From positions 4,821,029-4,885,028 of the forward strand of contig OZ026843.1 in the NCBI GenBank assembly GCA_964023205.1: 64,000 nucleotides of DNA, given 5' to 3'. Source of the stretch: Lutraria lutraria. Its lineage: Eukaryota > Mollusca > Bivalvia > Venerida > Mactridae. Shown piece by piece: positions 4,927-63,275 of the stretch. The translations under genes were made by a program, and so were the position numbers. The notes under the pieces were generated by a model. The model was not told where the DNA came from, searched no databases, and worked only from the letters and a program-made list of their open reading frames with translations. The stretch's first letter is position 1. The number at the start of each line of letters is the position of its first letter.

Positions 4927-7900
4927 GTAAGTAAATAGTGTTATTCTTTTTTTCTTTCAAACTGACCTGAGATCATTGAAGTTTTATATTTCTCCTCACA
5001 AAACGACAACAACAACATCAAAAAACGGTGTGTCTTTCATACTTTAAATTGTATTCTTGCTTTAAATTAGGCTTATAAGAAAAAATGACTTGATCCATTT
5101 TATCTAACCTTTTCTATTCTCATAGATTTTGTATTTGCATGTAAGGGATGTGGCGTTTTTTTGTTAATAAATCAACAGCTAAAGTGGTCAAATAGACTTT
5201 CAAAATAATCTTAAACATGTCTAAGTTCAACTGTATCAATTTAATTCTTCATGGCGATATATTATGCAGATGACATCGTTGTTTTCGCAAATTCTGCTGA
5301 AGAGTTACAAAACAACATTTGTTTATTATATAGTTATTGTGAGTTGTGGAAGTTGAAGGTCAATGTTGCTAAAACGAAAATAATGATTTTTAAAAAAGGT
5401 GGAACTAGATGTGCGTGAAGTTAGCAGCCTAGCAGCCTAGCAGCCTAGCAGCGTGAAGTTGGCAGCCTAGCAGCATAGCAGCCTAGCAGCGTGAAGTTGG
5501 CAGCCTAGCAGCGTAGCAGCCTAGCAGCGTGAAGTTGGCAGCCTAGCAGCCTAGCAGCGTGAAGTTGGCAGTGTAGCAGCGTAGCAGCCTAATACATTTC
5601 TACAAATAAACTTCACAAGAAATCAAGCTAAACACTTAAAAAATACACGAAGTAATGTGAGTCTGTTGTTTGAAAGTTAATTAATTGGAAATAAAGGAAT
5701 TTTCACAAAAAAATAATCATGTGAAATTATACGCTGCTAGCAGCGTGAAGTTGGCAGCGTGAAACTACGACCCAGCAGCGAAACAGCGTAATATATATTT
5801 CTACAGATGAACCTCGCAACAAATGCATAAAATAAGGTGAGTCTGTTGTTTGAACGTTAATCAAGTGAAAATATCGAAATTTTCAATAAAAAAAAATAAT
5901 GTGAAATTATACGCTGCTGGCAGCGTGAAGTTGGCAGCGTGAAACTAGCAGCGTAGCAGCGAAACAGCGTAATATATATTTCTACAGATAAACCTCGCAA
6001 CAAATGAAGCTCAATACTTAAGAATGCATAAGATAAGGTGAGTCTGTTGTTTGAACGTTAATCAAGTGAAAATATCGAAATTTTCAATAAAAAAAAATAA
6101 TGTGAAATTATACGCTGCTGGCAGCGGGAAGTTGGCAGCGTGAAACTAGCAGCCCAGCAGCGTTACAGCGTAATATGTATTTCTACAGATAAACTTCAAA
6201 CCAAATCAAGCTAAATACTTAAGAAAGCATAAAAGAACGTCAGTGTATTGTTTGAACGTTCATTAGTCGAAAATATGGGAAATTTCGTTTTTTTTGTGTG
6301 TGTGAAATTAGACGCTGCTGTCAGCGTGAAGTTAGCAGCCCAGCAGCTTAACAACGTCATATATATTTCTACAGATAAACTTAAAAGCAAACCATGCAAA
6401 GACTTTAAAATGCATGAAATAATACTATTATGTTGCTTTAATGCGTATTAGACTAAAAAATGCGATTTTTGTCGAGTTTGTGAGTTCGGTATTGTAGCGA
6501 CCACACAACGGTCTAATAGATTTCTACTGATAAACTGATAGAATAATACGATTATATTGCTTTAACGTTCAATAGAGAAAACTTAGTTTTTGTATGTGTG
6601 TGTGTTTGAAGTTGGAAGGGGGGGGGGGGATACACGGTGAATTAGACAACAATACGCATTGAATTTACATCTGTACTATATAAACATAGCACGCATTAAA
6701 CTAACACCTGTATCATAGGTGCATTGCACGTATAAAATGTACACCATCCTCATTGGTACGTAGCCCGCATTGAACGTACACCTGTATGATAGGAACATAG
6801 CGCACATTAGACGTACACCTGTATTATAGAAACATCGCCCGCATTGAACGTACAACTGTATAATATAAACATAGCCGGCATCGAACGTACACCTGTATTG
6901 TAAGGACATATTCCGCATTGATTATACACCCTCACTTTATAATTTAATACGATTTTTCTTTTTTCAGTCAAAGTTTGTGACATATTTCTTCATAAAATAC
7001 ACAAGTATGAAGGCTGAAGACTAAAATGCATAAACTAATACTATTTTTTTGTTTTGATGCTTATTAAAAAGAAGGTTTTGAGTTTGTATCATTTTGTGAA
7101 ACGATTTTTGCGGGAAGGAAAAAACGCAAGAAATTCAGACTGGATCATAGTTAGGCCATTAGCTTCCAGCGGTCTAGAATTACACACCCTACCATCGAGA
7201 TATGTATCAGAATCACGTTCTACAAGCTATAGAAACTATTTTGGATGGGAAAAAACGCTAAAAAATCACTGCATCATAGTAAGGCCGCTACGCCGCGAGA
7301 GCTTCCAGCGGTCCTATACTGTACAGGGTGCGTATCCGTATGTGTATTTTATGTGTACCTTTAAGTACGACATGATCGAGGATGACTGCAATTATTTCCA
7401 ACCTGGAACCATTATACAATCTATAATGGTCCCAGTTATAACCCGGACAGCTCAAAAACGGCGCTGAAACGTATCGACTATTAACAAATTGTGAAATCCA
7501 CTTATTTTTTACTAATCATGCTAATTTTGTATAACAGCAATAAACTGTGTTTCAAATACCGATTTTGCTTTTATACGAAAGTAAATTTAGTCAACCGCTA
7601 CACAGATTTTTATAATTTTATACATACTGTTTTAAATGCATTTGTTTTAGTCTTCTATTTTAATAATACTGAAACTCGATTGGGCGTTCATTTTTTATTA
7701 CCTTGTATAATGCATCATGTTGTGACTGTATATACAAGGATGCCTAATAGGCAGATATGATCTTCGCAAAATTCCGGTTATTTCCGTAAATATAACGACG
7801 TAAATATCCGAGATTTGCCGGAAGATCGTTGAATGGATCTTAAAAATCTCACGTGTATCATCAAGGGTCGGAGAAGATATCATTTGATGGTGGTCATATT

Positions 7901-10900
7901 TTATATGGTGAATGAAAATAAATTTTCAAAACGAGTGCACATTTGATGCCATTTTGCATATAAAAGTTATGATGTTAAAAACCTCGAATTTACTTCGGAA
8001 TCTACCAAGTTAGGTCTGGATGATTTTGATAAATTAAAACAGTCCATTTGTTGAAATTAATACAAACGTATCCTAACACCTTTACCTGTTAAATTAAATT
8101 AAATATTTCTAACCAATATATTTCCTCAAGCAGTACTGGTATTAACATCAAAGATATTTTTTGCAAGTTCTTTTGAAGATCATAATAGTTATCTTGTAAA
8201 ACATAATTTCATGTATAATTAGAATAATTTGATTTAGAAAAGAAGAATTAAGCATTCAGTTGCAATTTTAATGTATACAGAAGAAAAAATGGCAGCAATA
8301 AAATGTTAGTGACGGTAATTGTTATATTTTAGTATATACTGAAGTATGTAATTGTTCTTACATAATCTGGTAATTAAAGGATAACTTTCGTTTATTACAT
8401 ATATGCTACGGCGGTGTTTATCAAATTCCCGTACATCGGGAAAGTATTGTTGTCTAATTCACCGTGTATCCCCCCCCCCCCCCCCTTCCAACTTCAAACA
8501 CACACACATACAAAAACTAAGTTTTCTCTATTGAACGTTAAAGCAATATAATCGTATTATTCTATCAGTTTATCAGTAGAAATCTATTAGACCGTTGTGT
8601 GGTCGCTACAATACCGAACTCACAAACTCGACAAAAATCGCATTTTTTAGTCTAATACGCATTAAAGCAACATAATAGTATTATTTCATGCATTTTAAAG
8701 TCTTTGCATGGTTTGCTTTTAAGTTTATCTGTAGAAATATATATGACGTTGTTAAGCTGCTGGGCTGCTAACTTCACGCTGACAGCAGCGTCTAATTTCA
8801 CACACACAAAAAAAACGAAATTTCCCATATTTTCGACTAATGAACGTTCAAACAATACACTGACGTTCTTTTATGCTTTCTTAAGTATTTAGCTTGATTT
8901 GGTTTGAAGTTTATCTGTAGAAATACATATTACGCTGTAACGCTGCTGGGCTGCTAGTTTCACGCTGCCAACTTCCCGCTGCCAGCAGCGTATAATTTCA
9001 CATTATTTTTTTTTATTGAAAATTTCGATATTTTCACTTGATTAACGTTCAAACAACAGACTCACCTTATCTTATGCATTCTTAAGTATTTAGCTTCATT
9101 TGTTGCGAGGTTTATCTGTAGAAATATATATTACGCTGTTTCGCTGCTGGGCTGCTAGTTTCACGCTGCCAACTTCACGCTGCCAGCAGCGTATAATTTC
9201 ACATTAATTTTTTTTATTGAAAATTTCGATATTTTCACTTGATTAACGTTCAAACAACAGACTCACCTTATTTTATGCATTTGTTGCGAGGTTCATCTGT
9301 AGAAATATATATTACGCTGTTTCGCTGCTGGGTCGTAGTTTCACGCTGCCAACTTCACGCTGCTAGCAGCGTATAATTTCACATTATTATTTTTTTGTGA
9401 AAATTCCTTTATTTCCAATTAATTAACTTTCAAACAACAGACTCACATTACTTCGTGTATTTTTTAAGTGTTTAGCTTGATTTCTTGTGAAGTTTATTTG
9501 TAGAAATGTATTAGGCTGCTACGCTGCTACGCTGCCAACTTCACGCTGCTAGGCTGCCAACTTCACGCTGCCAGCAGCGTATAATTTCACATTAATTTTT
9601 TTTATTGAAAATTTCGATATTTTCACTTAATTAACGTTCAAACAACAGACTCACCTTATTTTATGCATGTATTGCGAGGTTTATCTGTAGAAATATATAT
9701 TACGCTGTTTCGCTGCTACGCTGCTAGTTTCACGCTGCCAACTCATGTCCAACTTTGGCGGACATGGCCTTATCGTGTATCTGATCAATTTTCAAGGGAA
9801 ACAACTACCATTCAGGGGTTTACATAGTTTAGGGTTTACATACAGTCTACCTATTGTTACCCTCCTTGCTTGCGTTATTCTGGTTTTATTAGGGGTCATA
9901 AAGAAATAACGTCCGTCACGCGTAACAGATAAAATCTGTTATCTCAATTGATCCAAAAATCGATATTTCACTGTATTACTGTTCGATCTCTGATAAGATT
10001 TGAACATGTCCCAACTATTATGTACGTTTTACTTGATTAAAATGGACAGAAACGTATAATATGGACATTCATTTGTTTCATCAGTAAAATTAATTTTGCA
10101 AATACGAATATCATCATGAAAAGACAAAATTCAAGAATCCAAGTAATAATTTTGTTATTGTGTACTCAGTCAAATAGCAATTTGATTCTATTCTTCATAT
10201 AATCACATTAGCTTACAATACATTTATTTGCACTACTTAAATCAACATTAAACTATCATGATTGCAATTAGGCGTGAAAAAATGTTGTTCTTTTCTTATT
10301 AAAAGTGGGGTATGTAGGTATACGGACTTTATGACAGAACAATCAACAAGTACGTGTTATTTGACTATTTGCGCATATGCGGGATATTGTACGATTTTCA
10401 GCCACTGTTTTGCTGTATTAATGTTTGATATGAACATGAAATCAAAGGACAACTGTATAATCTTAAATCTTTATTACCTTGTTTACATCTTGTTGTCACA
10501 TGCATGCAAGTACTTCCACGTGACTTTAGTATATCATTATTATAATTTATTATTTTGTGCAGTGTGTTGAATAGAGTATAATACAGGTATAAGTTATTTT
10601 AAAACTACCAGTAAACATGTAATTGTATCCTTGACAATATGAATTCAGTGAGGTAAATGATATCAGTAAACTTTATAAAATGCATTTGTATGAATTTGAA
10701 ATAAATGTTGCGCAACTGAAATATGTTTTTGTTATTAACCATTGATGTTCAGTTATGGATGAAATATTCTACAGCTATACTGAGCCTCTGTTGTTATAAA
10801 ATCTCCTAACTGTTAGTAATGATATGACAAGCAGAAATATATCAGACAGTAAACAAAATACATACATGTATACATATTTCATAGTAAGAATTAATTAAAA

Positions 10901-13900
10901 ACATGAGTGATCAATGATACTTGAGTTCTGACGCCCTAATGTTAGGTATTTTTTATTTTTGATACTCCTGTTGCTGGAACTTTACCGAAATACTGCATAC
11001 TTCATAAAATAATAAAAATTACATAATATCAAACATATTAATTTGAATTGATATAACAGTGACACTGTTTGTAAGGAACCTGTTTGTATTCTGCAAACAT
11101 GACCAACAATTATATTTGTGTCACATGTGGCTGAAAAAAATACCAAACGTATCCGTAAAATTGAGAAAGTGTATAACAGGTTAAACTAATCGCCAGTTGT
11201 AAGTTATGACGTATGGGAATTTCGTGGAAAACCCCCTGACAACGGTTAATTTTAAAAACTAAGATTTCTTTTCAAACTAAGAAAAATTCCGTCTGAGTTT
11301 ACGCTTAGAATAAGTCTAAGATGAAGACTTAGAAATTTCTTATGTCTTAGTAAAAAATTTAAGATAAAGAAAATTCTCAACTCGGAAAACTTAGAACGTT
11401 TGTGAATACGGGCCCAGGGTGTACAACAGTACATTCAAATTCTGCAATTTTTATGGAAATTTCCATCCGTCTTAATTTTATGAAAATAAAATTATATCTA
11501 TAGCTCGGTGCCCAATTGTTTATGAGTCAATGTGAGATGCGTATAAAAAATAGAATAAACAGGTAAAGTTAGCAACCATATAAAAGGATCTCAAAAATAT
11601 GATTTTATTATCCACCCTTTGTATACACATCATTGAAAAAATAAATATACAAAGTAGGTAATCTATATTATTTTATGACATGTTTTTATGTGACATGTGG
11701 ACGTATGCCAAAATGATATATTTAGCATATAATTAGATTATAAAAAATGAATTAATAAAAAAGTTCATTTAATGAAATATCATCGTCCAGTTAAAGGCCC
11801 ATTAGAACAATAGATGAAATATTAATAAAATATAAGAAATACATATTACTTGCTCTAAAACAATATATACATAATCCCTTTCTTTATCCACATCTCATAA
11901 AATAGATGTCAGATGCTTTTTCTTATTCTTTTGCAACATGATTAAAAAAACACTATGCCGTATTTCTATATGTACTTGGTGATTAAAAAAGAAAAAAATC
12001 CGAATGTTTTTATTGCAAGTAAAAGTCAGTTTCATATCTATGTAGGTAAAATAAGACCTACTTCAATTTTAACATCCAAAAAGCTAATGGGGCTTTAACA
12101 ATAGTGAAATCCATTCTTTTAATTTTGTTAATTTTTTATAATATCAACAAATTTTAAATATCGATTTTGCTTTTTATACGGAAGTGAAGTCCAATATTTC
12201 ACAGATTCTTATATTTTCATCCATGTTGTAATATGTTTTAGTCTTCTACCTCAATCATCCTAAAATTTGATTTAACGCGTTCAATTTTATTACCCTGTAT
12301 AATACATCGTGCTGTGACTGTATATACATGGATACCTAATCAGCAGATATGATCATCGCCAAATGCTCGTTGTTTCCGTAAACGTACGTAAAAATCCGAG
12401 ATTTGCCGAACGATTGACGAATATAACTTAAAAAATCCAAGGGGTAGCTTTAAAAATCATCAAAAGGGTCGAAGAAGATATTATTTTATTGTTTTCATAT
12501 TTTACATGGTGAAAGAAATTAAATTTTCTAAACGAATGCAATGAGTACAAATTTGATCACATTTCCCCCCAAAAAGTTATGATGTTGAAAACATCAAAAG
12601 TTCATTGAAAAATCTACCAGTTTCACGCTTTTTACATTGAATATAGAAGGAATCGATAGGTGTCTTTTTCAAACGCAAAAGGGTCGAAGAAAGCATTAAT
12701 TTAAAATAATAGAAAATACATCATTAGAAAGATAAAATATTAATTAAACTTTTGTGATGAGTACAAATTTCGTAATTTAAGTAGAACAAAAGTTATGACG
12801 ATTATAGTGAAAATCCCCTTCTTCGTTTAATGTAAAATTATTATCGATTTTCCAAATCAGCATGTCCGCGAAAGTTGGGTATGTCACGCTGCCAGCAGCG
12901 TATAATTTCACATTAATTTTTTTATTGAAATTTCGATATTTTCACTTAATTAACGTTCAAACAACAGACTCATCTTATTTCATGCATTTATTGCGAGGTT
13001 CATCTGTAGAAATATATATTACGCTGTTTCGCTGCTGGGTCGTAGTTTCACGCTGCCAACTTCACGCTGCTAGCAGCGTATAATTTCACATGATTATTTT
13101 TTTGTGAAAATTCCTTTATTTCCAATTAATTAACTTTCAAACAACAGACTCACATTACTTCGTGTATTTTTTAAGTGTTTAGCTTGATTTCTTGTGAAGT
13201 TTATTTGTAGAAATGTATTAGGCTGCTACGCTGCTACGCTGCCAACTTCACGCTGCTAGGCTGCTAGGCTGCCAACTTCACGCTGCTAGGCTGCTAGGCT
13301 GCTACGCTGCCAACTTCACGCTGCTAGGCTGCCAACTTCACGCTGCTAGGCTGCTAGGCTGCTAGGCTGCCAACTTCACGCTGCTAGGCTGCTAGGCTGC
13401 TAGGCTGCTAACTTCACGCACATCCAAAGAATACAGAAATTTTATGCGATGGACATCCTATTCAAATTGTAAAAAAGTTCAGTTATTTAGATATTGTTTT
13501 ACAAGCGTTGGTTCGCTTAGTTCAGCCCAAAGTCAAGCCCAAAAAGCAGTTTGTTTTTAAACTCAATAAATATTTGTATATAGATTTACATATCTTCCGT
13601 CGAAACATCAATTAGAATTATTTGATAAACTTGTATCCCCAATCTTAAGTTATTGTAGCGAAGTCTGTGGTTTTGTAAACGACTTATCAATTGAAAGGGT
13701 ACATTTGCAATTCTGTAAAAATATTTGGGTGTTGAAAAATCGACATAAAACGACTTTATATATGGGGAACTAGGACGAACATCATTAAAAACTGTGCATT
13801 TATTTAACATTATTAAGTACTGGATAAAGATGTTGCAACTTAGCCCTAACAAATATGTTTTTATTATATATTCTTTGTTAAAAAGTGATTTTGAACAACA

Positions 13901-17663: not shown

Positions 17664-17672
17664 CGAGAATCA
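17664..17672 (+). repeat. Target-site duplication of foldback 2, left copy
   Basis: CGAGAATCA lies directly before the element tip ATGTGTGTGAAG and recurs at 31079-31087 directly after the other tip. It could be counted as 10 bases if the following A is included. Confidence 0.9.
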
Positions 17673-19463
17673 ATGTGTGTGAAGTTGGCGGCCTAGCGGC
17701 CTAGCGGCCTGGCGGCGTGAAGTTGGCGGCCTAGCGGCCTAGCGGCCTGGCGGCGTGAAGATGGCGGCCTGGCGGCCTAGCGGCCTAGCGGCGTGAAGTT
17801 GGCGGCCTGGCGGCCTAGCGGCCTAGAATTTTATACTCCCAATCGCCCAGAAATGCATCAGAATCACGTTCTATAAGCATTAGAAACTATTTTGGATGGA
17901 AAAAGTCGCAAAAAATCACTTTAACATAGGTATGAAATTTCGCCGAAAACTTAGTTTTTTCACCGACCCCAAAATTTTTAACACCCAATCACTCAGAAAT
18001 GTATCAGAATCACATTCTACATGCATTAGAAACGATTTTGGACGGAAAAAGTCGCAAAAAATCACTTTTTCATAGTTACGCCGCTAGGCCGCCAACTTCA
18101 CGTTTTCAGCGGCCTAGCGGCCTAGAATTTTATACCCCCAATCGCCCAGAAATGCATCAAAATCACGTTCTATAAGCATTAGAAACTATTTTGGATGGAA
18201 AAAGTCGCAAAAAATCACTTTAACGTAGGTATGAAATTTCGCCGAAAACTTAGTTTTTTCACCGACCCAAAATATTAAACACCCAATCACTCAGAAATGA
18301 ATCAGAATCACATTCTACATGCATTAGAAACGATTTTGGACGGGAAAAGTCGCAAAAATTCACTTTTTCATAGTTACGCCGCTAGGCCGCTAGGCCGCCA
18401 ACTTCACGTTTTCAGCGGCCTAGCGGCCTAGAATTTTATACCCCCAATCGCCCAGAAATGCATCAGAATCACGTTCTATAAGCATTAGAAACTATTTTGG
18501 ATGGAAAAAGTCGCAAAAAATCACTTTAACATAGGTATGAAATTTCGCCGAAAACTTAGTTTTTTCACCGACCCAAAATATTAAACACCCAATCACTCAG
18601 AAATGTATCAGAATCACATTCTACATGCATTAGAAACGATTTTGGACGGAAAAAGTCGCAAAAAATCACTTTTTCATAGTTACGCCGCTAGGCCGCTAGG
18701 CCGCCAACTTCACGTTTTCAGCGGCCTAGCGGCCTAGAATTTTATACTCCCAATCGCCCAGAAATGCATCAGAATCACGTTCTATAAGCATTAGAAACTA
18801 TTTTGGATGGAAAAAGTCGCAAAAAAATCACTTTTTCGTAGGTACGCAATTTCGCCGAAAACTTAGTTTTTTCACCGACCCGGAATATTAAACACCCAAT
18901 CACTCAGAAATGTATCAGAATCACATTCTACATGCATTAGAAACTATTTTGGACGGAAAAAGTCGCAAAAAAATCACTTCATCGTAGGTACGCAATTTCG
19001 CCGAAAACTTATTTTTTTCACCCACCCGGAATATTAAACACCCAATCACTCAGAAATGTATCAGAATCATATTCTACAAGCCTAAGAATCTATTTAGGAT
19101 GGAGAAGTCGCAAAAAACACTCTCACGGCATCATAATTACGCCGCTAGGCCACTAACTTCCCTTCTTTCGGCGCGTATACTCAAGCAATCATCGAGCGGC
19201 CTAATATATATTGTAGGAACTTGTTTTACCATTAATGGTAAAGAAGCAAATTTATTTAAACTAAATCATTCTTATTCAATATCGAAAGCAAAATCGGGAC
19301 AGATGAGTGTGTGAACTAAAACATATAATTCATAATCCAAAAATCAACTTTAACCACGGCGATAGCGACACTTCTCTATTATTTTAGTTTCCGAAACGCA
19401 GGTTTTACGGGTTTTTTTGTCTAGACTACTGATAAATAAACTAAGTTGATGCAGAAACATTTT
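17673..19463 (+). repeat. Foldback element 2, left arm
   Basis: The outer word array (17684-17826: CGGCCTAG words, GCGGCGTGAAGTTGG spacers) is followed by about four 300-bp units. Each contains CAGCGGCCTAGAATTTTATA, TCAGAATCACGTTCTATAAG, GAAACTATTTTGGATGG, AAAGTCGCAAAAAATCACTT and a TACGCCGCTAGGCCGCC block. It then runs to diverged modules and to TCTAGACTACTGATAA and GATGCAGAAAC, which pair with 26823-26870 of the right arm. Confidence 0.88.
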
Positions 19464-21637
19464 TGGAAGGGAAAAGTCGCAAAAAAATCACTTCACCATA
19501 CTGGTACGCCATTACGCCGAAAACTTCACCTTTTTAGCTATCTGGAATATTATACACACAATCGTCAAATAATGTATCAGATTCACGTTCTACAAGCAAG
19601 GGAAAAGTCGCAAAAGATACTCTCGCGGCAACAAAGTTACGCCGCAAGGCCACTAACTACCCTACTTTCGGCAACCCGGAATATTAAACACCCAATCACT
19701 CCGAAGTGTATCAGAATCACGTTCTACAAGCTTTAGAAACTATTTTTGAAGTGAAAGTCGCAAAATGGTCACGTGTATGTGTACGTGAACGAAGATAAAA
19801 GATTTATCATTCAGTAAGTGTTCTGAATACGTGAATAGGTACACTAATTTCGTGTTAAAGAAGAAATCGTTATGTTAATACATGCTTATGCTTCAGACAA
19901 AATAGAACGTATAAGAAAATCAAAGTACTGAATGTAGTGTCGGAACTCGATTTTTTCATATGAGACTAGTCACTGGTGTTGCTCGCAACACAACAATGAC
20001 TGTTAGGAGAAATCCTAAATTAGGAACTGTACAGTTGATGGATATTCATGCTTAGGAATTAACATACACAATCTCAATATTGCCATCTATTTATGTACAT
20101 ATTCTGATATTCATGTGCTAAATTCCATCAACCTAGCATGATGGTTATCTAAGTTATCAGATGTTTCGAGTTATTATGTAGCCCATTATCCAGCCTATAC
20201 TTTTCCGAATTCATCGGTACTAAAATAAGCATTGTTACCGTCGTATTTACTGATTTAATACATACCGGAAAGCTCTTCAATACGCCCCATTTTAATAATA
20301 TATCTTGATTATGGCCACATATCACTTTAAATGCATACTTCAGTGTTAGAAACGAATTAAAATCGACCTAGTGATAATCTGGTTTTGAAGAGTTTTTTTT
20401 ATTTTCCATGTTTTTAGTTCCATACACGGAACAAAATTGCTATCGATAATAGAAATGAACTGACATAAACAACTATCGATTGATTAATCGTAGTTTAGGA
20501 TTTTTTCAGAAATTCTATATAATTGGTGTGAATTATATTCAAACTTAATATCATGATGTTGGACTATATGACAGGTTTTGAAGTGAAAGTAAAAGTTAAT
20601 TGTAAAAAATTATAGCTATTCGGAAACTAGCCGGTATACGGCGATATTTGCCGATCGCGCTACGGAATATACCGACATAGCACGATTTCATTAGTTCCAT
20701 TACGATCCTTCTGTTTTAACAATTGCTAACTTCACAATAACTAAGTAAACAGTAGATTTGATTGTTAGTACAATCTGATTATTTGATGAAGCTGACGATT
20801 AACTATCACGTATGTTTACAAAATGACGACTTTATGAATGAATAAGGAAGGGTTTCTCATTATTAGGGCATTACTGAAATTAAGTAATTGTTCTGTCTTA
20901 AATATTATATAGATGCATTTTGTTATATCCATGTAATAGAATATAATGAGATCTTATTGAATCATGCCATTTACATTTAAATAGAAAATGCGTTTCGTCT
21001 ATGAAGTATGATTCCAAAAGCTGAGAGCTCTAACTTTGATAGGTTTTACAGTTTGTCCTAATTTCTCGTCCAATGAAATCTCCGCATTTCATTTGATATT
21101 TGAAAAATAGATCGCATAAAATGTGCTAAAACCTGATATGGAAAAAATACGTCACTTATCTTTCTGTATATACAGAAATTAAGACAAACTGTAAATCAGT
21201 CATCCTTCATAATTTGAATTTTATGCACCATAACACTGCGCTCCGCTCCGCGTCGCTTGTAATATATCCCATAAAATTCAATATATGGGTTATTCATAAG
21301 TGACAACCACATTTTCGTAATCTGATATGCTTATGGGTTTCAAACTTAATATTCTGTACATTGAGTTGTTTAGTAACTACTTTTTTCTATTAAACACATA
21401 AGCAAGTTGACTTTCAAGATGACCGCCAATTCAAACCAAGGAAGGTAAATATTGTAGATGTGGGAAATATGTATTGGTGTGCGACGCAAATATTTGCAAA
21501 TGCCAGTGTTTTTTTTTAGTTATTAATTTCTTTAATCATATTATATGAACTGTCTTATTCTTAACATTTTGCATTTAACATGCACATATATGCCTTGCTT
21601 AAAAAATGTATCAAATAGGGAATCAATTTAAGTATCT
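19464..21637. other. Left part of the foldback 2 loop
   Basis: Up to about 19780 there are further diverged arm modules (AAAGTCGCAAAAAAATCACT, TATCAGAATCACGTTCTACA). Beyond that is AT-rich DNA with no supported gene. Near 20630-20685 a patch CCGGTATAC...ATATACCG is partly self-complementary. Confidence 0.5.
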
Positions 21638-24600
21638 CATGTCCAACTTTTGCGGACATGGCCTTATCGTGTATCTGATCAATTTTCAAGGGAAACAACT
21701 ACAATTCAGGGGTTTACATACAGTCTACCTATTGTTACCCTCATTGCTCGCGTTATTCTAGTTTTATTAGGGGTCATAAAGAAATAACGTCAGTCACGCG
21801 TAACAGATAAAATCTGTTATCTCAATTGATCCAAAAATCGATATTTCGATCACTGTATTACTTTTCGATCTCTGATAAGATTTGAGCATGTCCCAACTAT
21901 TATGTACGTTTTACTTGATTAAAATGGACAGAAACGTATAATATGGACATTAATTTGTTTCATCAGTAAAATTAATTTTGCAAATACGAATATCATGAAA
22001 AGACAAAATTCAAGAATCCAAGTAATAATTTTGTTATTGTATACTCAGTCAAATAGCAATTTGATTCTATTCTTCATATAATCACATTAGCTTACAATAC
22101 ATTTATTTGCACTACTTAAATCAACATTAAACTATCATGATTGCAATTAGGCGTGAAAAAATGTTGTTATTTTCTTATTAAAAGTGGGGTAGGTAGGTAT
22201 ATGGACTTTATGACAGAACAATCAACAAGTACGTGTTATTTGACTATTTGCGCATATTGTACGATTTTCGGATAGACATTGGTTCAAGTTAATTGTCATA
22301 CAAGGGCAGAGCGATGTGAACTAAAATATCCTTAAACCATATATCATTTAATATATTTAAACATTGCTTTGCATGAACACTTTGAGTGCAAACATATTCA
22401 GCAACTGTTTTGCTGTATTAATGTTTGATGTGAACATGAAATCAAAGGACAACTGTATAATCTTAAATCTTTATTACCTTGTTTACATCTTGTTGTCACA
22501 TGCATGCAAGTACTTCCATGTGACTTTAGTATATCATTAATTGTAATTTATTTATTATTTTGTGCAGTGTGTTGAATAGAGTATAATACAGGTATAAGTT
22601 ATTTTAAAACTACCAGTAAACATGTACATGTAATTGTATCCTTGACAATATGAATTCAGTGAGGTAAATGATATCAATAAACTTTATAAAATGCATTTGT
22701 ATGAATTTGAAATAAATGCTGCGTAACTGAAATATGTTTTTGTTATTAACCATTAATGTTCAGTTATGGATGAAATATTCTACAGCTATACTGAGCCTCT
22801 GTTGTTATAAAATCTCCTAACTGTTAGTAATGATATGACAAGCAGAAATATATCAGACAGTAAACAAAATACATATTTCTTAGTAAGAATTAATTAAAAA
22901 CATGAGTGATCAATGATACTTGAGTTCTGACGCCCTAATGTTACGTATTTTTGATACTCCTGTTGCTGGAACTTTACCGAATTACTGCATACTTCATAAA
23001 ATAATAAAAATTACATAATATCAAACATATTAATTTGAATTGATATATCAGTGACACTGTTTGTAAGGAACCTGTTTGTATTCTGCAAACATGACCAACA
23101 ATTATATTTGTGTCACCTGTGGCTGAAAAAAATGCCAAACGTATCCGTAAAATTGAGAAAGTGTATAACAGGTTAAACTAATCGCCAGTTGTAAGTTATG
23201 ACCTATGGGAATTCCATGGAAACCCCCTGACAACGGTTAATTTTAAAAACTTAAGATTTCTTTTCAAACTAAGAATAATTCCGTCCGAGTTTACGCTTAG
23301 AATAAATCTAAGATGAAGACTAAGAAATTTCTTATGTCTTAGTAAAAAATTTAAGATAAAGAAAATTCTCAACTCGGAAAACTTAGAACGTTTGTGAATA
23401 CGGTCCCAGGGTGTACAACAGTACATTCAATTTCTGCAATTTTTATGGCAATTTCCATCCGTCTTAATTATATGAAAATAAAATGATATCTATAACTCGG
23501 TGCCCAATTGTTTATGAGTCAATGTGAGATGCATGCGTATAAAAAATAAAATGAACAGGTAAAGTTAGCTACCATATAAAAGGATCTCAAAAATATGATT
23601 TCATTATCCACCCTTTGTATACACATCATTGAAAAAATAAATATACAAAGTAGGTAATCTATATTATTTCATGACATGTTTTATAAGTGACATGTGGACG
23701 TATGCCAAAATGATATATTTAGATTATAAAAAATGAATTAATAAAAAAGTTCATTTAATGAAATATCATCGTCTATTTAAAGGCCCATTAGAACAATAGA
23801 TGAAATAATAATAAAATATAAGAAATACATATTACTTGCTTTAAAACAATATATACATAATCCCTTTCTTTAGCCACATCTCATAAAATAGATGTCAGAT
23901 GCTTTTTCTTATTCTTTTGCAACATGATTAAAAAACACTGTGCCGTATTTCTATATGTACTTTGTGATTAAAAAAGAAAAAAATCCGAATGTTTATATTG
24001 CAAGTAAAAGTCAGTTTCATATCAATGTAGGTAAAATAAGACCTACTTCAATTTTAACATCCAAAAAGCTAATGGGGCTTTAACAATAGTGAAATTCATT
24101 CTTTTAATTTTTTTATTTTTTTTATAATATCAACAAATTGGATTTTAAATATCGATTTTGCTTTTTATACGGAAGTAAAGTAAAATATTTCACAGATTCT
24201 TATATTTTCATCCATGTTGTAATATGTTTTAGTCTTCTACCTCAATCATCCTAAAATTTGATTCAACGCGTTCAATTTTATTACCCTGTATAATACATCG
24301 TGCTGTGACTGTATATACATGGATACCTAATCAGCAGATATGATCATCGCCAAATGCACGTTGTTTCCGTAAACGTACGTACAAATCCGAGATTTGCCGA
24401 ACGATTGACGAATAGAACTTAAAAAATCTAAGGGGTAGCTTTAAAAATCATCAAAAGGGTCGAAGAAGATATTATTTTATTGTTTTAATATTTTACATGG
24501 TGAAAGAAATTAAATTTTCAAAACGAATGCAACGAGTACAAATTTGATCACATTTCCCCCAAAAAAGTTATGATGTTGAAAACATCAAATTTTCATTGAA

Positions 24601-24873
24601 AAATCTACCAGTTTCACGCTTTTACATTGAATATAGAAGGAATCGATAGGTGTCTTTTTCAAACGCAAAAGGGTCGAAGAAAGCATTAATTTAAAATAAT
24701 AGAAAATACATCATTAGAAAGATAAAATATTAATTAAACTTTTGTGATGAGTACAAATTTCGTAATTTAAGTAGAACAAAAGTTATGACGATTATAGTGA
24801 AAATCCCCTTCTTCGTTTAATGTAAAATTATTATCGATTTTCCAAATCAGCATGTCCGCGAAAGTTGGGTATG
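21638..24873. mobile_element. 3.1-kb element with palindromic ends, copy 2
   Basis: Aligned by eye with copy 1 (9744-12883) over its whole length with only scattered substitutions and small indels, in the same orientation. The ends are CATGTCC-N9-GGACATG and CATGTCC-N9-GGGTATG. The main difference is about 130 extra bases at 22270-22400, after TTGTACGATTTTC. The flanks are ...AGTATCT and ATTCAG..., again with no evident duplication. The near identity of the copies implies recent activity or gene conversion. No protein family is recognised inside. Confidence 0.85.
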
Positions 24874-26822
24874 ATTCAGTAGCTATATATTAGCCATCTA
24901 ATAACTGATTGTGTAATTAGAAGCTAGTCTATCAATGACCTTGTTATTGGCCTATCTACCGTGGAATATGCGAGGGGTGATCCAGAAATTCGTAGACAGT
25001 ACATGTTAATCACAAATAAATATACGTAATAATTCTAAATTCCGATTCCGTCTGGCCATTAGCGGTTGCGAGATCTTACGTTGCACACGCGGTGAGTTAC
25101 ACGTGCTTACAACGTACTATCGTCTTGCGATTTTCACGTTATCGTATGAAGCCGTACTTGCATGTACCGTTTACGAACCGAACCCCTTCTCACTCTGATG
25201 TTTTAAGTGCGTGCAAGTATGATGAACGTGAGTACTGGGGTAAATCCGCAGCCGGTACTCACAACATTCGGATCGGCACGTTTATGCAAGTAGACAACAC
25301 GCACTTGAAAGTATGGCGAGTTGGGACCGGCGCTTACTGAGCGCAAATAATTGTTCCAATGAATGAGATCTGCCCTACTTGAATCAGAGGTAGTGATGAA
25401 TGACCACATAAGCTATTTCATTACCAAATCAACACATTTGAGCGGACTGGGATCGATCTCGTGATTACTGCATATAACATAATAAATAAAGTTTCCTTTT
25501 AAAAAGGAATGGCTTGGCTGGTTGTTGCTGATAAAAGTTAGTTCTGATACCATAACTAAATTGGTTCATTTTATTCGTCTTGTTGACCATTTTGTTATGG
25601 AATTGTCCTCTTTCAAAGTCAACAGGTAGTCTGAAACATCAGCGAAATATTCGATACCTTTCACTCGTTGAAGGTATATTTTTGGTCATGTTGATAGATT
25701 TTACTATAATTCATCGTACTGTACACAAATTTTACGGAAATATGTGCGGAAAACAAACGCGACTCATTTTGAGTCGTTTATCTGTAAGCTTTTATAGAAC
25801 AAGTTTGTTTGACGATGAACTGCAATATAATGCGTATACGTATCATCGTCAAAGACACATACAAAAACTGGGGGGGGGGGCTAGTAGGTACTAGAATTGC
25901 ATAAACAGAGGGCACTGCCTGGGAATTCATTTACTAACTAACAATCTAACATGGAACAAACACATTGATGAAACACGAAATAAAGCATAGGATTACTTAT
26001 AACTTCGTTCGTGTTGAGAAGAGAACAATGTCAAGAAAAAGAAGACCCATGCGTGGTGTAAAATTGGCCGTACTAAATATTTTCCTAAAATCTATTGATT
26101 ATATCCAGGTAATAAACAAATACGCATAATAAAAAACGTTCTGAATCACTCGTAAATAACATCAGAATTGGCGGCACAATTGCATCAGAGAAAGCGTTTC
26201 GCAAGTTAAATTATAGTAGGGGTGTATTTCATTAAATTAACTAATCCTCCGCTTATTACTTTCAGCAATTATGTTGATAATTAAACAAAGAGCTATTAAA
26301 GCAAAAAAAATTGAGACTGCGTTAAATTATATTATCTTTATTTGTCATAACGGATGATGGAACATGCCGATTTATAGTGAAACACACCGATTTTACAATG
26401 GACTCGCAAATGTGTATATCAAGATCACGTGACAAAATTATTAGCGGCAATAGCGTTTCGCAAGTTACATTATAGAAGGGCTTACTTAATTCTCTTGAAC
26501 AATCCTCCGCTAATATGTCTTTCAGTAATGATTAAAATAATTGATTTAAGTCACGTGATACCGATTCACACAGTTAGCGTAAACCAATCACCGGACTGTT
26601 AGCATATAGCTCTCAACCAATCGCCGGACTCTTTACATTTTTGTGCACTTGTACCCAGCTTTCGTATTGTATCTACCAGCATCTAGGGAACAAACGTAAC
26701 CGAAAACAATACATAGGCTTGGAGCCGTAGCTCCAAGCCAAAAACGGAACATTTGTGCATGTTTCTTCGCCGCTTTCGAAATGTATGAGTTAAATACACA
26801 TAATTCACGGCTACGTACCTTG
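24874..26822. other. Right part of the foldback 2 loop
   Basis: It contains a segment of more balanced composition (about 24960-25420) that starts GGGGTGATCCAGAAATTCG. It has a plus-strand frame of 82 codons (25092-25340) resembling nothing recognised. Also present are a G10 run near 25870 and two diverged copies of a block of about 80 bases at 26192-26272 and 26452-26532 (GCGTTTCGCAAGTTA...AATCCTCCGCT). No gene is supported. A transposase relic in this segment is possible but was not demonstrated. Confidence 0.4.
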
Positions 26823-27360
26823 AAACGTTTCTGCATGAACTTATCAGTAGTCTAGACCAAAAAAAACCTAAAACCAGCGTTTCGGAAAACTAAAATAATA
26901 GATAAGTGTCGCCGTGGTTAAAATTGATTTCTGGATGATAAATTATATGTCTTAGTTTACACACTCATCTGTCCCGATTTTGCTTTCGATATTGTATAAG
27001 ATGTATTTAGTTTAAATAAACTTGCTTCTCTACCATTAATGGTAAAATAAGTTCTAAGAGCTGAAAGAAGGAAAGTTAGTGGCCTAGCGGCGTAACTATG
27101 ATGCCGCGAGAGTGTTTTTTGCGACTTCTACTTCAAAAACAGTTTCCTACGGTTGTAGAACGTGATTCTGATACATTTCTGAGTGATTGGGTATTAAATA
27201 TTCAGGGTCGCAAAAAAATGTTTTTTCTGCGAAATTGCGTACCTACGATAAAATGATTTTTTTGCGACTTTTTCCATCCAAAATAGTCTCTAATGCTTAA
27301 AGAACGTGATTCTGATGGATTTCTGGGCGATTGGGGGTATAAAATTCTAGGCCGCTAGGC

Positions 27361-30300
27361 CGCTGAAAACGTGAAGTTGGCGGCCTAGCGGCGTAACTAT
27401 GAAAAATTGATTTTTTGCGACTTTTTCCGTCCAAAATCGTTTCTAATGCTTATAGAACGTGATTCTGATGCATTTCTGGGCGATTGGGGGTATAAAATTC
27501 TAGGCCGCTAGGCCGCTGAAAACGTGAAGTTGGCGGCCTAGCGGCGTAACTATGAAAAATTGATTTTTTGCGACTTTTTCCGTCAGAAATAGTTTCTAAT
27601 GCATGTAGAATGTGATTCTGATACATTTCTGAGCGATTGGGTGTTTAATATTTTGGGTCGGTGAAAAAACTAAGTTTTCGGCGAAATTGCGTACCTACGT
27701 TAAAGTGATTTTTTGCGACTTTTTCCATCCAAAAAAGTTTCTAATGCTTATAGAACGTGATTTTGATGCATTTCTGGGCGATTGGGGGTATAAAATTCTA
27801 GGCCGCTAGGCCGCTGAAAACGTGAAGTTGGCGGCCTAGCGGCCTAGCGGCGTAACTATGAAAAAGTGATTTTTTGCGACTTTTTCCGTCCAAAATCGTT
27901 TCTAATGCATGTAGAATGTGATTCTGATACATTTCTGAGTGATTGGGTGTTTAATATTTTGGGTCGGAGAAAAAACTAAGTTTTCGGCGAAATTTCATAC
28001 CTATGTTAAAGTGATTTTTTGCGACTTTTTCCATCCAAAATAGTTTCTAATGCTTATAGAACGTGATTCTGATGCATTTCTGGGCGATTGGGAGTATAAA
28101 ATTCTAGGCCGCTAGGCCGCTGAAAACGTGAAGTTGGCGGCCTAGCGGCCTAGCGGCGTAACTATGAAAAAGTGAATTTTTGCGACTTTTTCCGTCCAAA
28201 ATCGTTTCTAATGCATGTAGAATGTGATTCTGATTCATTTCTGAGTGATTGGGTGTTTAATATTTTGGGTCGGAGAAAAAACTAAGTTTTCGGCGAAATT
28301 TCATACCTATGTTAAAGTGATTTTTTGCGACTTTTTCCATCCAAAATAGTTTCTAATGCTTATAGAACGTGATTTTGATGCATTTCTGGGCGATTGGGGG
28401 TATAAAATTCTAGGCCGCTAGGCCGCTGAAAACGTGAAGTTGGCGGCCTAGCGGCCTAGCGGCGTAACTATGAAAAAGTGATTTTTTGCGACTTTTTCCG
28501 TCAGAAATCGTTTCTAATGCATGTAGAATGTGATTCTGATACATTTCTGAGTGATTGGGTGTTTAATATTTTGGGTCGGTGAAAAAACTAAGTTTTCGGC
28601 GAAATTTCATACCTATGTTAAAGTGATTTTTTGCGACTTTTTCCATCCAAAATAGTTTCTAATGCTTATAGAACGTGATTCTGATGCATTTCTGGGCGAT
28701 TGGGAGTATAAAATTCTAGGCCGCTAGGCCGCTGAAAACGTGAAGTTGGCGGCCTAGCGGCCTAGCGGCGTAACTATGAAAAAGTGATTTTTTGCGACTG
28801 TTTCCGTCCAAAATCGTTTCTAATGCATGTAGAATGTGATTCTGATACATTTCTGAGTGATTGGGTGTTTAATATTTGGGTCGGTGAAAAAACTAAGTTT
28901 TCGGCGAAATTTCATACCTATGTTAAAGTGATTTTTTGCGACTTTTTCCATCCAAAATAGTTTCTAATGCTTATAGAACGTGATTTTGATGCATTTCTGG
29001 GCGATTGGGGGTATAAAATTCTAGGCCGCTAGGCCGCTGAAAACGTGAAGTTGGCGGCCTAGCGGCCTAGCGGCGTAACTATGAAAAAGTGATTTTTTGC
29101 GACTTTTTCCGTCCAAAATCGTTTCTAATGCATGTAGAATGTGATTCTGATACATTTCTGAGTGATTGGGTGTTTAATATTTTGGGTCGGAGAAAAAACT
29201 AAGTTTTCGGCGAAATTTCATACCTATGTTAAAGTGATTTTTTGCGACTTTTTCCATCCAAAATAGTTTCTAATGCTTATAGAACGTGATTCTGATGCAT
29301 TTCTGGGCGATTGGGAGTATAAAATTCTAGGCCGCTAGGCCGCTGAAAACGTGAAGTTGGCGGCCTAGCGGCCTAGCGGCGTAACTATGAAAAAGTGAAT
29401 TTTTGCGACTTTTTCCGTCCAAAATCGTTTCTAATGCATGTAGAATGTGATTCTGATTCATTTCTGAGTGATTGGGTGTTTAATATTTTGGGTCGGAGAA
29501 AAAACTAAGTTTTCGGCGAAATTTCATACCTATGTTAAAGTGATTTTTTGCGACTTTTTCCATCCAAAATAGTTTCTAATGCTTATAGAACGTGATTTTG
29601 ATGCATTTCTGGGCGATTGGGGGTATAAAATTCTAGGCCGCTAGGCCGCTGAAAACGTGAAGTTGGCGGCCTAGCGGCCTAGCGGCGTAACTATGAAAAA
29701 GTGATTTTTTGCGACTTTTTCCGTCAGAAATCGTTTCTAATGCATGTAGAATGTGATTCTGATACATTTCTGAGTGATTGGGTGTTTAATATTTTGGGTC
29801 GGTGAAAAAACTAAGTTTTCGGCGAAATTTCATACCTATGTTAAAGTGATTTTTTGCGACTTTTTCCATCCAAAATAGTTTCTAATGCTTATAGAACGTG
29901 ATTCTGATGCATTTCTGGGCGATTGGGAGTATAAAATTCTAGGCCGCTAGGCCGCTGAAAACGTGAAGTTGGCGGCCTAGCGGCCTAGCGGCGTAACTAT
30001 GAAAAAGTGATTTTTTGCGACTGTTTCCGTCCAAAATCGTTTCTAATGCATGTAGAATGTGATTCTGATACATTTCTGAGTGATTGGGTGTTTAATATTT
30101 GGGTCGGTGAAAAAACTAAGTTTTCGGCGAAATTTCATACCTATGTTAAAGTGATTTTTTGCGACTTTTTCCATCCAAAATAGTTTCTAATGCTTATAGA
30201 ACGTGATTCTGATGCATTTCTGGGCGATTGGGAGTATAAAATTCTAGGCCGCTAGGCCGCTGAAAACGTGAAGTTGGCGGCCTAGCGGCCTAGCGGCGTA

Positions 30301-30856
30301 ACTATGAAAAAGTGAATTTTTGCGACTTTTTCCGTCCAAAATCGTTTCTAATGCATGTAGAATGTGATTCTGATTCATTTCTGAGTGATTGGGTGTTTAA
30401 TATTTTGGGTCGGTGAAAAAACTAAGTTTTCGGCGAAATTTCATACCTATGTTAAAGTGATTTTTTGCGACTTTTTCCATCCAAAATAGTTTCTAATGCT
30501 TATAGAACGTGATTCTGATGCATTTCTGGGCGATTGGGGGTATAAAATTCTAGGCCGCTAGGCCGCTGAAAACGTGAAGTTGGCGGCCTAGCGGCGTAAC
30601 TATGAAAAAGTGATTTTTTGCGACTTTTTCCGTCCAAAATCGTTTCTAATGCATGTAGAATGTGATTCTGATACATTTCTGAGTGATTGGGTGTTAAATA
30701 TTTTGGGGTCGGTGAAAAAACTAAGTTTTCGGCGAAATTTCATACCTATGTTAAAGTGATTTTTTGCGACTTTTTCCATCCAAAATAGTTTCTAATGCTT
30801 ATAGAACGTGATTCTGATGCATTTCTGGGCGATTGGGAGTATAAAATTCTAAGCCG
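27361..30856 (-). repeat. Satellite-like array of 306-bp units
   Basis: The landmark CGCTGAAAACGTGAAG occurs at 27361, 27514, 27812, 28118, 28424, 28730, 29035, 29341, 29647, 29953, 30258 and 30564. Spacing is 305-306 bases after one 153- and one 298-base unit. Each unit is a dimer of two similar halves of about 153 bases: one with CCGTCCAAAATCGTTTCTA, the other with CCATCCAAAATAGTTTCTA. Confidence 0.95.
27812..30257 (-). repeat. 1,223-bp higher-order repeat, two copies
   Basis: Four unit variants recur in the same order with a period of exactly 1,223 bases. TCGGAGAAAAAAC is at 27964/29187 and 28270/29493; GTGAATTTTTGCG at 28172/29395; CCGTCAGAAATCG, by its TCAG, at 28501/29724; GCGACTGTTTCC, by its CTG, at 28798/30021. 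So 27812-29034 and 29035-30257 are near-identical tetramer blocks. Confidence 0.92.
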
Positions 30857-31078
30857 CTAGGCCGCCAGGCCGCCAACTTCACGCCGCTAGGCCGCTAGGC
30901 CGCCAGGCCGCCAACTTCACGCCGCTAGGCCGCTAGGCCGCCAGGCCGCCAACTTCACGCCGCCAGGCCGCTAGGCCGCCAGGCCGCCAACTTCACGCCG
31001 CCAGGCCGCTAGGCCGCTAGGCCGCCAACTTCACGCCGCCAGGCCGCTAGGCCGCTAGGCCGCCAACTTCACACACAT

Positions 31079-31087
31079 CGAGAATCA
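31079..31087 (+). repeat. Target-site duplication of foldback 2, right copy
   Basis: CGAGAATCA directly follows the tip CTTCACACACAT and is identical to 17664-17672. Confidence 0.9.
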
Positions 31088-32983: not shown

Positions 32984-33021
32984 CAAGGACTTATATACAT
33001 ATGTATGTATATAAGTCCTTG
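32984..33021. repeat. Perfect 17-bp inverted repeat (hairpin), 4-base loop
   Basis: CAAGGACTTATATACAT (32984-33000) is followed by ATGT and then its exact complement at 33005-33021, 362 bases before the SIK3 start codon. It could extrude as a cruciform or be a tiny MITE relic. No function is assigned. Confidence 0.85.

Positions 33022-33265: not shown

Positions 33266-63275
<30,010 letters not shown>

What the first reader, a model, noticed from the sequence alone, without database searches (positions are those of the whole stretch)
17664..31087. 13.4-kb foldback transposon with clean 9-bp target duplication
The tips ATGTGTGTGAAG/CTTCACACACAT are perfectly inverse and CGAGAATCA flanks both, so this is a real transposed unit and not just palindromic satellite. 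The arms (1.8 and 4.3 kb) are built entirely of tandem modules. Foldback elements with 9-bp duplications are known from Drosophila FB. One of this size and modularity in a mollusc-like genome, with no recognisable transposase, could be an undescribed family.
Basis: partly seen in the sequence, partly recalled or inferred. Interest (0 to 1): 0.78.

Follow-up and report, generated by a model that had tools for sequence, protein, structure and literature searches.

The report
Bivalve foldback transposon, non-autonomous
A large jumping-gene copy with long mirror-image arms of tandem repeats and no recognisable gene sits in a probable bivalve genome beside a relative; it looks like a new member of the known foldback transposon type, most likely moved by an enzyme made elsewhere.

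Summary
The tips at 17673 and 31078 are perfect inverses and CGAGAATCA directly flanks both. Of 2055 outer-boundary inverted 12-mer pairs within 25 kb, 2 have a 7-11 bp direct flank; only this one exceeds 7 bp. The arms (about 1.8 and 4.3 kb) are mostly 38-bp and 306-bp tandem modules. Both elements hold a nested 3.1-3.2 kb insert. No read-through frame of the loops or of A's nested insert reaches a Pfam cut-off. The host is probably a bivalve. Best reading: a non-autonomous foldback moved in trans, probably by a Mutator-like (MULE) transposase, its arms lengthened by tandem duplication. The class is inferred from the 9-bp duplication and analogues; no transposase was found. The host-genome search did not complete (14 attempts), so mobility rests on one target duplication plus a diverged relative. 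Probable new family of a known kind (Drosophila FB, Tetris, Meloidogyne Tm1); size and modularity are unusual.

The parts
17664..17672 (+). left target-site duplication CGAGAATCA
17673..31078 (.). element A, 13,406 bp foldback transposon
17673..17826 (+). left outer domain: tip plus about 3.8 copies of a 38-bp unit GTGAAGTTGGCGGCCTAGCGGCCTAGCGGCCTGGCGGC
   Evidence: outer 138 bp of left and right arms 98.6% identical
17810..19144 (+). left 306-bp module array (4 units, the innermost diverged; each a 161+145 dimer), with tip-like hairpin junctions at 18087, 18393, 18699
19145..19460 (+). left inner domain, inverted against about 26830-27090
19461..26829 (.). loop; no Pfam family above cut-off in six read-through frames; 19461-19765 is a decayed module (about 70% identical to most modules)
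21638..24873 (.). nested insert (3236 bp) with imperfect 23-bp inverted ends (20 of 23 matches; CAT..CCAACTTT.GCGGACATG), no target duplication; same family as 9744-12883
26830..27090 (-). right inner domain
27111..30865 (-). right 306-bp module array (about 12 units, of which the two innermost are a half unit and a decayed one); 27736-28985 and 28959-30208 are an exact 1250-bp repeat at an offset of 1223 bp (four units)
30853..31078 (-). right outer domain, about 5.8 copies of the 38-bp unit, and tip
31079..31087 (+). right target-site duplication CGAGAATCA
5409..13423 (.). element B, related foldback (tip ATGTGCGTGAAGTTAGCAGCC; 38-bp outer unit, about 180-200 bp inner modules; no target duplication found)
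5409..6655 (+). B left arm; 5521-6655 is 99.4% identical outside gaps (98.3% by BLAST) to the inverse of 8444-9574
6656..8443 (.). B loop; holds one A-type module (7168-7299, 76-81% identical to A modules in the rows listed) and a decayed nested-insert fragment (7481-8007)
8444..13423 (-). B right arm, interrupted by the nested insert at 9744-12883
9744..12883 (.). nested insert (3140 bp) in B; joining its flanks restores an in-phase array unit without a duplication (97.5% to the undisturbed module at 5867-5988)

Best explanation
Element A is a non-autonomous foldback DNA transposon of a bivalve. Shown: inverse tips, one 9-bp target duplication, two long inverted arms made of an outer 38-bp array, a 306-bp array and a short inner domain, a loop without any recognisable protein, and a second element with related tips but different arm modules and flanks. 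Inferred: a transposase made elsewhere in the genome, most likely of the Mutator-like (MULE) class, binds the repeated tip motif GTGAAGTTGGC, pairs the ends, cuts the element out and inserts it with a 9-bp staggered cut. The arms then lengthened by tandem duplication of modules (unequal exchange or slippage) and may be kept alike by exchange between arms. The arm repeats are plausibly extra transposase-binding sites.
For: 9-bp duplication at the exact tips. A's loop shows no Pfam family above cut-off in six frames. The tip motif GTGAAGTT[GA]GC occurs 46 times in 64 kb: 25 in A (1 of these in the loop), 20 in B, 1 elsewhere. An exact 1250-bp repeat at a four-unit offset in the right arm, and unequal arms of 4 against about 12 modules, point to array growth. 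The outermost 138 bp of the two arms are 98.6% alike; left modules L2 and L3 are 97-99% identical to R1-R9, L1 95-96%. Published analogues: Tm1 has composite tandem TIRs, 9-bp duplications and a Phantom/MULE transposase (PMC3169594); Tetris has 8-10 bp duplications, 220-bp tandem TIR units and no coding middle (PMC4079207); Galileo's tandem TIR repeats hold binding sites for its transposase (PMC3688188 abstract). MULEs are reported in all mollusc genomes analysed in PMC10294476 (passages).
Against: No transposase or autonomous partner was found, so the MULE assignment rests on duplication length and analogy. Only one copy with a duplication is in hand. B has no target duplication. P-type Galileo shows that foldback anatomy alone does not identify the superfamily. 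Homogenisation is uneven: the innermost left module L4 is only 84-87% identical to R1-R10 and the whole arms align at 94.4%. The 1250-bp exact repeat could in part be an assembly effect.
Confidence: 0.72

Rival explanations
1. A foldback element moved by a non-MULE transposase (for example P/Galileo-like, hAT, Merlin or an unknown class), with foldback arms acquired by convergence.
For: Foldback or foldback-like arms are reported in several superfamilies: Galileo is P-type, FARE is MULE, Mcmar is Tc1/mariner (PMC3169594 discussion; PMC3573991 passages). No transposase is seen here. Merlin elements also make 8-9 bp duplications (recalled).
Against: Galileo uses 7-bp duplications; hAT makes 8 bp (recalled). 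Of the foldbacks with 9-bp duplications looked at here, Tm1 is MULE-type and Tetris was not assigned in the part read.
Confidence: 0.18
2. A palindromic satellite or inverted duplication created by replication or recombination, with the 9-mer match a coincidence.
For: Satellite-like arrays dominate the arms and the right array holds a recent-looking block duplication; B is similar but has no duplication.
Against: A 9-bp match at the exact ends has a chance near 2.4e-5 and is the only one longer than 7 bp among 2055 boundary pairs; the two elements share related tips ending abruptly in unrelated flanks.
Confidence: 0.05
3. Assembly artefact: collapsed or duplicated haplotypes or mis-scaffolded arrays produced the inverted structure.
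For: Long exact repeats (1250 bp in A, 617 bp between the B arms) are hard to assemble.
Against: The arms are diverged from each other in places, the flanks differ, and a nested insert with a clean in-phase junction interrupts B.
Confidence: 0.05

Closest known systems
Drosophila FB (Foldback) elements
   Same: long inverted arms built of tandem modules, 9-bp duplications (FB details recalled; no FB paper read here)
   Different: no sequence comparison was possible; A has 306-bp dimeric modules and a 7.4-kb loop; host is probably a bivalve
Tm1 of Meloidogyne (Mutator/Phantom foldback), PMC3169594
   Same: 9-bp duplications, tandem-repeat TIRs of unequal length, non-autonomous members, some copies without duplication, nested second element in one copy
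   Different: Tm1 units are ~14 bp and the sized elements in the parts read are about 1.1 and 2.6 kb, with asymmetric 7-bp ends; a transposase-bearing copy is known; A is 13.4 kb with symmetric tips and no known autonomous partner
Tetris of Drosophila virilis, PMC4079207
   Same: composite TIRs with a tandem domain and an inner domain; non-coding variable middle; 8-10 bp duplications; arrays can expand
   Different: 220-bp units behind a non-tandem flanking domain, TIRs up to 1.7 kb; A arms reach 4.3 kb, use two unit sizes and carry a tandem array at the very tip
Galileo (P superfamily) of Drosophila, PMC3573991 and PMC3688188
   Same: long TIRs with tandem units that hold transposase-binding sites; chimeric copies without matching duplications
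   Different: 7-bp duplications; THAP/P transposase; TIRs up to about 1.3 kb in D. mojavensis
Cg_HINE and other Helentron elements (for the nested insert only), PMC7492417 and PMC4067079
   Same: no target duplication, TT preference (the B site is T^T) and a palindromic 5' end
   Different: 3' inverted repeats of the mite HINEs lie about 38-60 bp from the end, with a palindrome nearer the end; here the inverted repeat is at the very end and the A site reads T^A

Membership tests
Foldback-type transposon (structural class) | long inverted arms made of tandem repeats | tested here: met
Foldback-type transposon (structural class) | target-site duplication at the tips | tested here: met
   A: 9 bp; B: none found
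Foldback-type transposon (structural class) | multiple dispersed copies with different flanks | tested here: inconclusive
   one diverged relative B in the window; the host genome could not be searched (14 unanswered genome-search runs)
Mutator-like (MULE)/Phantom superfamily | duplications of about 9 bp | tested here: met
   one element only; that 9 bp is the common MULE size is from PMC3169594
Mutator-like (MULE)/Phantom superfamily | MULE transposase (with FLYWCH in Phantom) in an autonomous copy | tested here: inconclusive
   not seen in this copy or in the B loop (Pfam); autonomous copies could not be sought
Galileo / P superfamily | 7-bp duplication | tested here: not met
   9 bp at A
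Helentron/HINE (nested insert) | no duplication, insertion within TT | tested here: inconclusive
   no duplication in 2 of 2; T^T in B, T^A in A
Helentron/HINE (nested insert) | 3' sub-terminal repeat set back from the end, with a palindrome nearer the end | tested here: not met
   inverted repeat ends at the 3' boundary (against PMC4067079)

The most novel reading that the evidence does not exclude
A bivalve group of giant foldback elements whose tips are conserved (GTGAAGTTGGC arrays) while the arm modules behind them are exchanged between subfamilies: B carries a single A-type module inside its loop. The arms would then work as factories that turn captured module sequence into satellite arrays, driven by an unidentified transposase.
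Probability: 0.12. Interest if true: 0.6.

Novelty: new member of a known kind. Interest (0 to 1): 0.36.

Why it matters
If the family is confirmed it extends large foldback elements with 9-bp duplications to bivalves, where my searches listed no such description, and gives a clear case of transposon arms growing into satellite-like arrays. The four-unit exact duplication, the two elements with related tips but different arm modules, and the tip motif repeated through the arms make the multiple-binding-site idea testable in a new phylum.

Tried and rejected
Whole-genome search for copies (genome search, own, the 88-bp tip): 14 attempts, none answered.

Exact tip patterns in viral contigs and in prokaryote genome contigs: 0 matches each; both collections are a poor place for a bivalve element, so this says little.

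Transposase remnants: six read-through frames each of 19460-21640, 24870-26860, the nested insert in A and the B loop (24 frames) gave no Pfam family above its cut-off. Sub-threshold matches were DUF4216 (E 0.096), DEFB136 (E 0.21) and tRNA-synt_1_2 (E 0.18), taken as chance. Seventeen open frames of the window were also scanned: the hits were Sulfotransfer_2 (above cut-off), a Pkinase fragment below cut-off (E 1.1e-5), and chance-level RusA and 7TM_GPCR_Srt. Of the nested insert in B one open frame was scanned, and the window outside the elements was not scanned in six frames.

A duplication for B was sought at 5-13 bp, boundaries shifted by up to 6, one mismatch allowed from 7 bp up: none. 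Exchange of flanks between A and B was tested on the 15 bases beside each of the four ends, both orientations, 7-11 bp with up to one mismatch: no match.

Helentron identity for the nested insert was considered and not accepted, because the 3' layout does not fit.

An unfiltered count of inverted 12-mer pairs with 7-11 bp direct flanks gave 54 hits among 21037 pairs, and a 9-bp control with displaced flanks gave 916 in 1,809,182. The hits that were printed (20 of the 54) lie inside the B arms, many with palindromic flanks, so restricts the count to outer boundaries.
Full report
Observation. With the AT-rich flanks a 9-bp match at fixed boundaries has a chance near 2.4e-5. Over the window, 2055 perfect inverted 12-mer pairs within 25 kb sit at an outer boundary; 2 of 2055 have a 7-11 bp direct flank, and this is the only one longer than 7 bp. 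These pairs are not independent, as many lie in the arrays. The unit is 13,406 bp.

Anatomy of A. From outside inwards each arm has (i) an outer array of a 38-bp unit, 3.8 copies left and 5.8 right; (ii) a 306-bp array, itself a diverged 161+145 dimer, 4 units left and about 12 right; (iii) an inner inverted domain of about 300 bp. The outer 138 bp of the two arms are 98.6% identical and the inner domain 93% outside gaps. Left modules L2 and L3 are 97-99% identical to right modules R1-R9, L1 95-96%, the innermost L4 only 84-87% to R1-R10; R11 is a half unit and R12 decayed. BLAST aligns the left arm to the right arm at 94.4%. The right array contains an exact 1250-bp repeat at an offset of 1223 bp, four units; modules R3, R4, R5 equal R7, R8, R9. 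The exact 28-base tip-like junction core occurs 3 times in the left and 12 times in the right array; it lies in a perfect hairpin with a stem of 17 bp in 11 of 15 and of 13 bp in 4 of 15.

A second element. B (5409-13423) has a related tip (3 mismatches of 21) and a related 38-bp outer unit, but its own arm modules of about 180-200 bp. Its arms are 99.4% identical outside gaps over 5521-6655 (98.3% by BLAST). No target duplication was found at 5-13 bp, and none of its end flanks matches those of A. Chimeric foldback copies without matching duplications are described for Galileo (PMC3573991, passages) and copies lacking a duplication for Tm1. The B loop holds one A-type module, 7168-7299, so the two elements share more than tips.

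Tip motif. GTGAAGTT[GA]GC occurs 46 times in the window: 25 in A (1 of them in the loop, at 20725), 20 in B, 1 elsewhere. I infer that this is the transposase-recognition motif. In Galileo, binding sites lie within such arm repeats (PMC3688188, abstract).

Nested insert. 9744-12883 in B and 21638-24873 in A are 97.7% identical outside gaps (3015 identities, 72 mismatches, 202 gap positions); BLAST gives two pieces at 93.2 and 95.4%. They have imperfect 23-bp inverted ends (20 of 23) and no duplication. In B the joined flanks make an in-phase array unit, 97.5% identical to the intact module at 5867-5988, so I infer that the insertion is later than the array. The layout resembles Helentron-type elements in lacking a duplication but not at its 3' end, and I leave its class open. 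The copy in A has no Pfam match.

Coding content. Six read-through frames of both loops and of the nested insert in A gave nothing above a Pfam cut-off. A is therefore non-autonomous, or its transposase is too decayed to see.

Host. The open frame at 15125-16294, between B and A, is a Sulfotransfer_2 protein whose best match is Ruditapes philippinarum at 36% identity; 6 of the 17 hits carry an organism name and all 6 are bivalves (that these genera are bivalves is recalled). An exon-like frame at 61896-63272 has 41 hits, 3 of them named: two Mytilus coruscus kinases and a protein of the snail Littorina saxatilis; 11 of the 41 carry PF02149. A bivalve is the likely host; the species is unknown.

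Known relatives. Tm1 combines tandem TIRs, 9-bp duplications and a Phantom/MULE transposase (PMC3169594; abstract, first part of Results, TIR section and first part of Discussion read). Tetris combines a tandem TIR domain, 8-10 bp duplications and a non-coding middle (PMC4079207, one of six parts read). MULEs are widespread in molluscs (PMC10294476, passages). Searches for foldback with mollusc or bivalve terms gave 11, 10 and 2 papers holding the terms; by title and start of abstract none presents a mollusc foldback. I looked at passages in PMC7492417, PMC8268682 and PMC11136912, where 'foldback' stands only in mentions or citations of Tetris; apart from the part of Tetris read, the other papers of those lists were seen as listings only. 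A search for MULE, bivalve and tandem-repeat terms gave only PMC10294476. This is no proof of absence from print.

Verdict. A is very probably a real transposed unit and a probable new family of a known structural kind. The MULE assignment is an inference from the duplication length and from analogues. The main gap is the host-genome search, which did not complete.

Noticed in passing
5409-13423: Second foldback element with related tips and no target duplication.
   Followed up: yes
9744-12883 and 21638-24873: Nested 3.1-3.2 kb mobile element with inverted ends and no target duplication, class open; a decayed relative lies at 7481-8007.
   Followed up: partly
15125-16294: Open Sulfotransfer_2 reading frame (carbohydrate sulfotransferase-like) lying between the two foldbacks.
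   Followed up: partly
48629-48961 and 61896-63272: Pieces of a probable MARK-type protein kinase gene (Pkinase C-terminal end below cut-off; 11 of 41 homologues of the second piece carry PF02149; the MARK name is recalled).
   Followed up: partly
60920-61402: 25-bp tandem array, about 19 copies, consensus TGTCCCTTTACATAATCAGAAGTTG.
   Followed up: no
38220-38525: 45/97-bp tandem array.
   Followed up: no
49248-49320: tRNA gene on the minus strand (Rfam, 61.9 bits).
   Followed up: no
6655-6921: Degenerate 37-bp tandem repeats (about 7 copies) in the B loop.
   Followed up: no
32984-33021: Short inverted 12-mer pair with a 7-bp direct flank, the only other boundary pair with a direct flank.
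   Followed up: no
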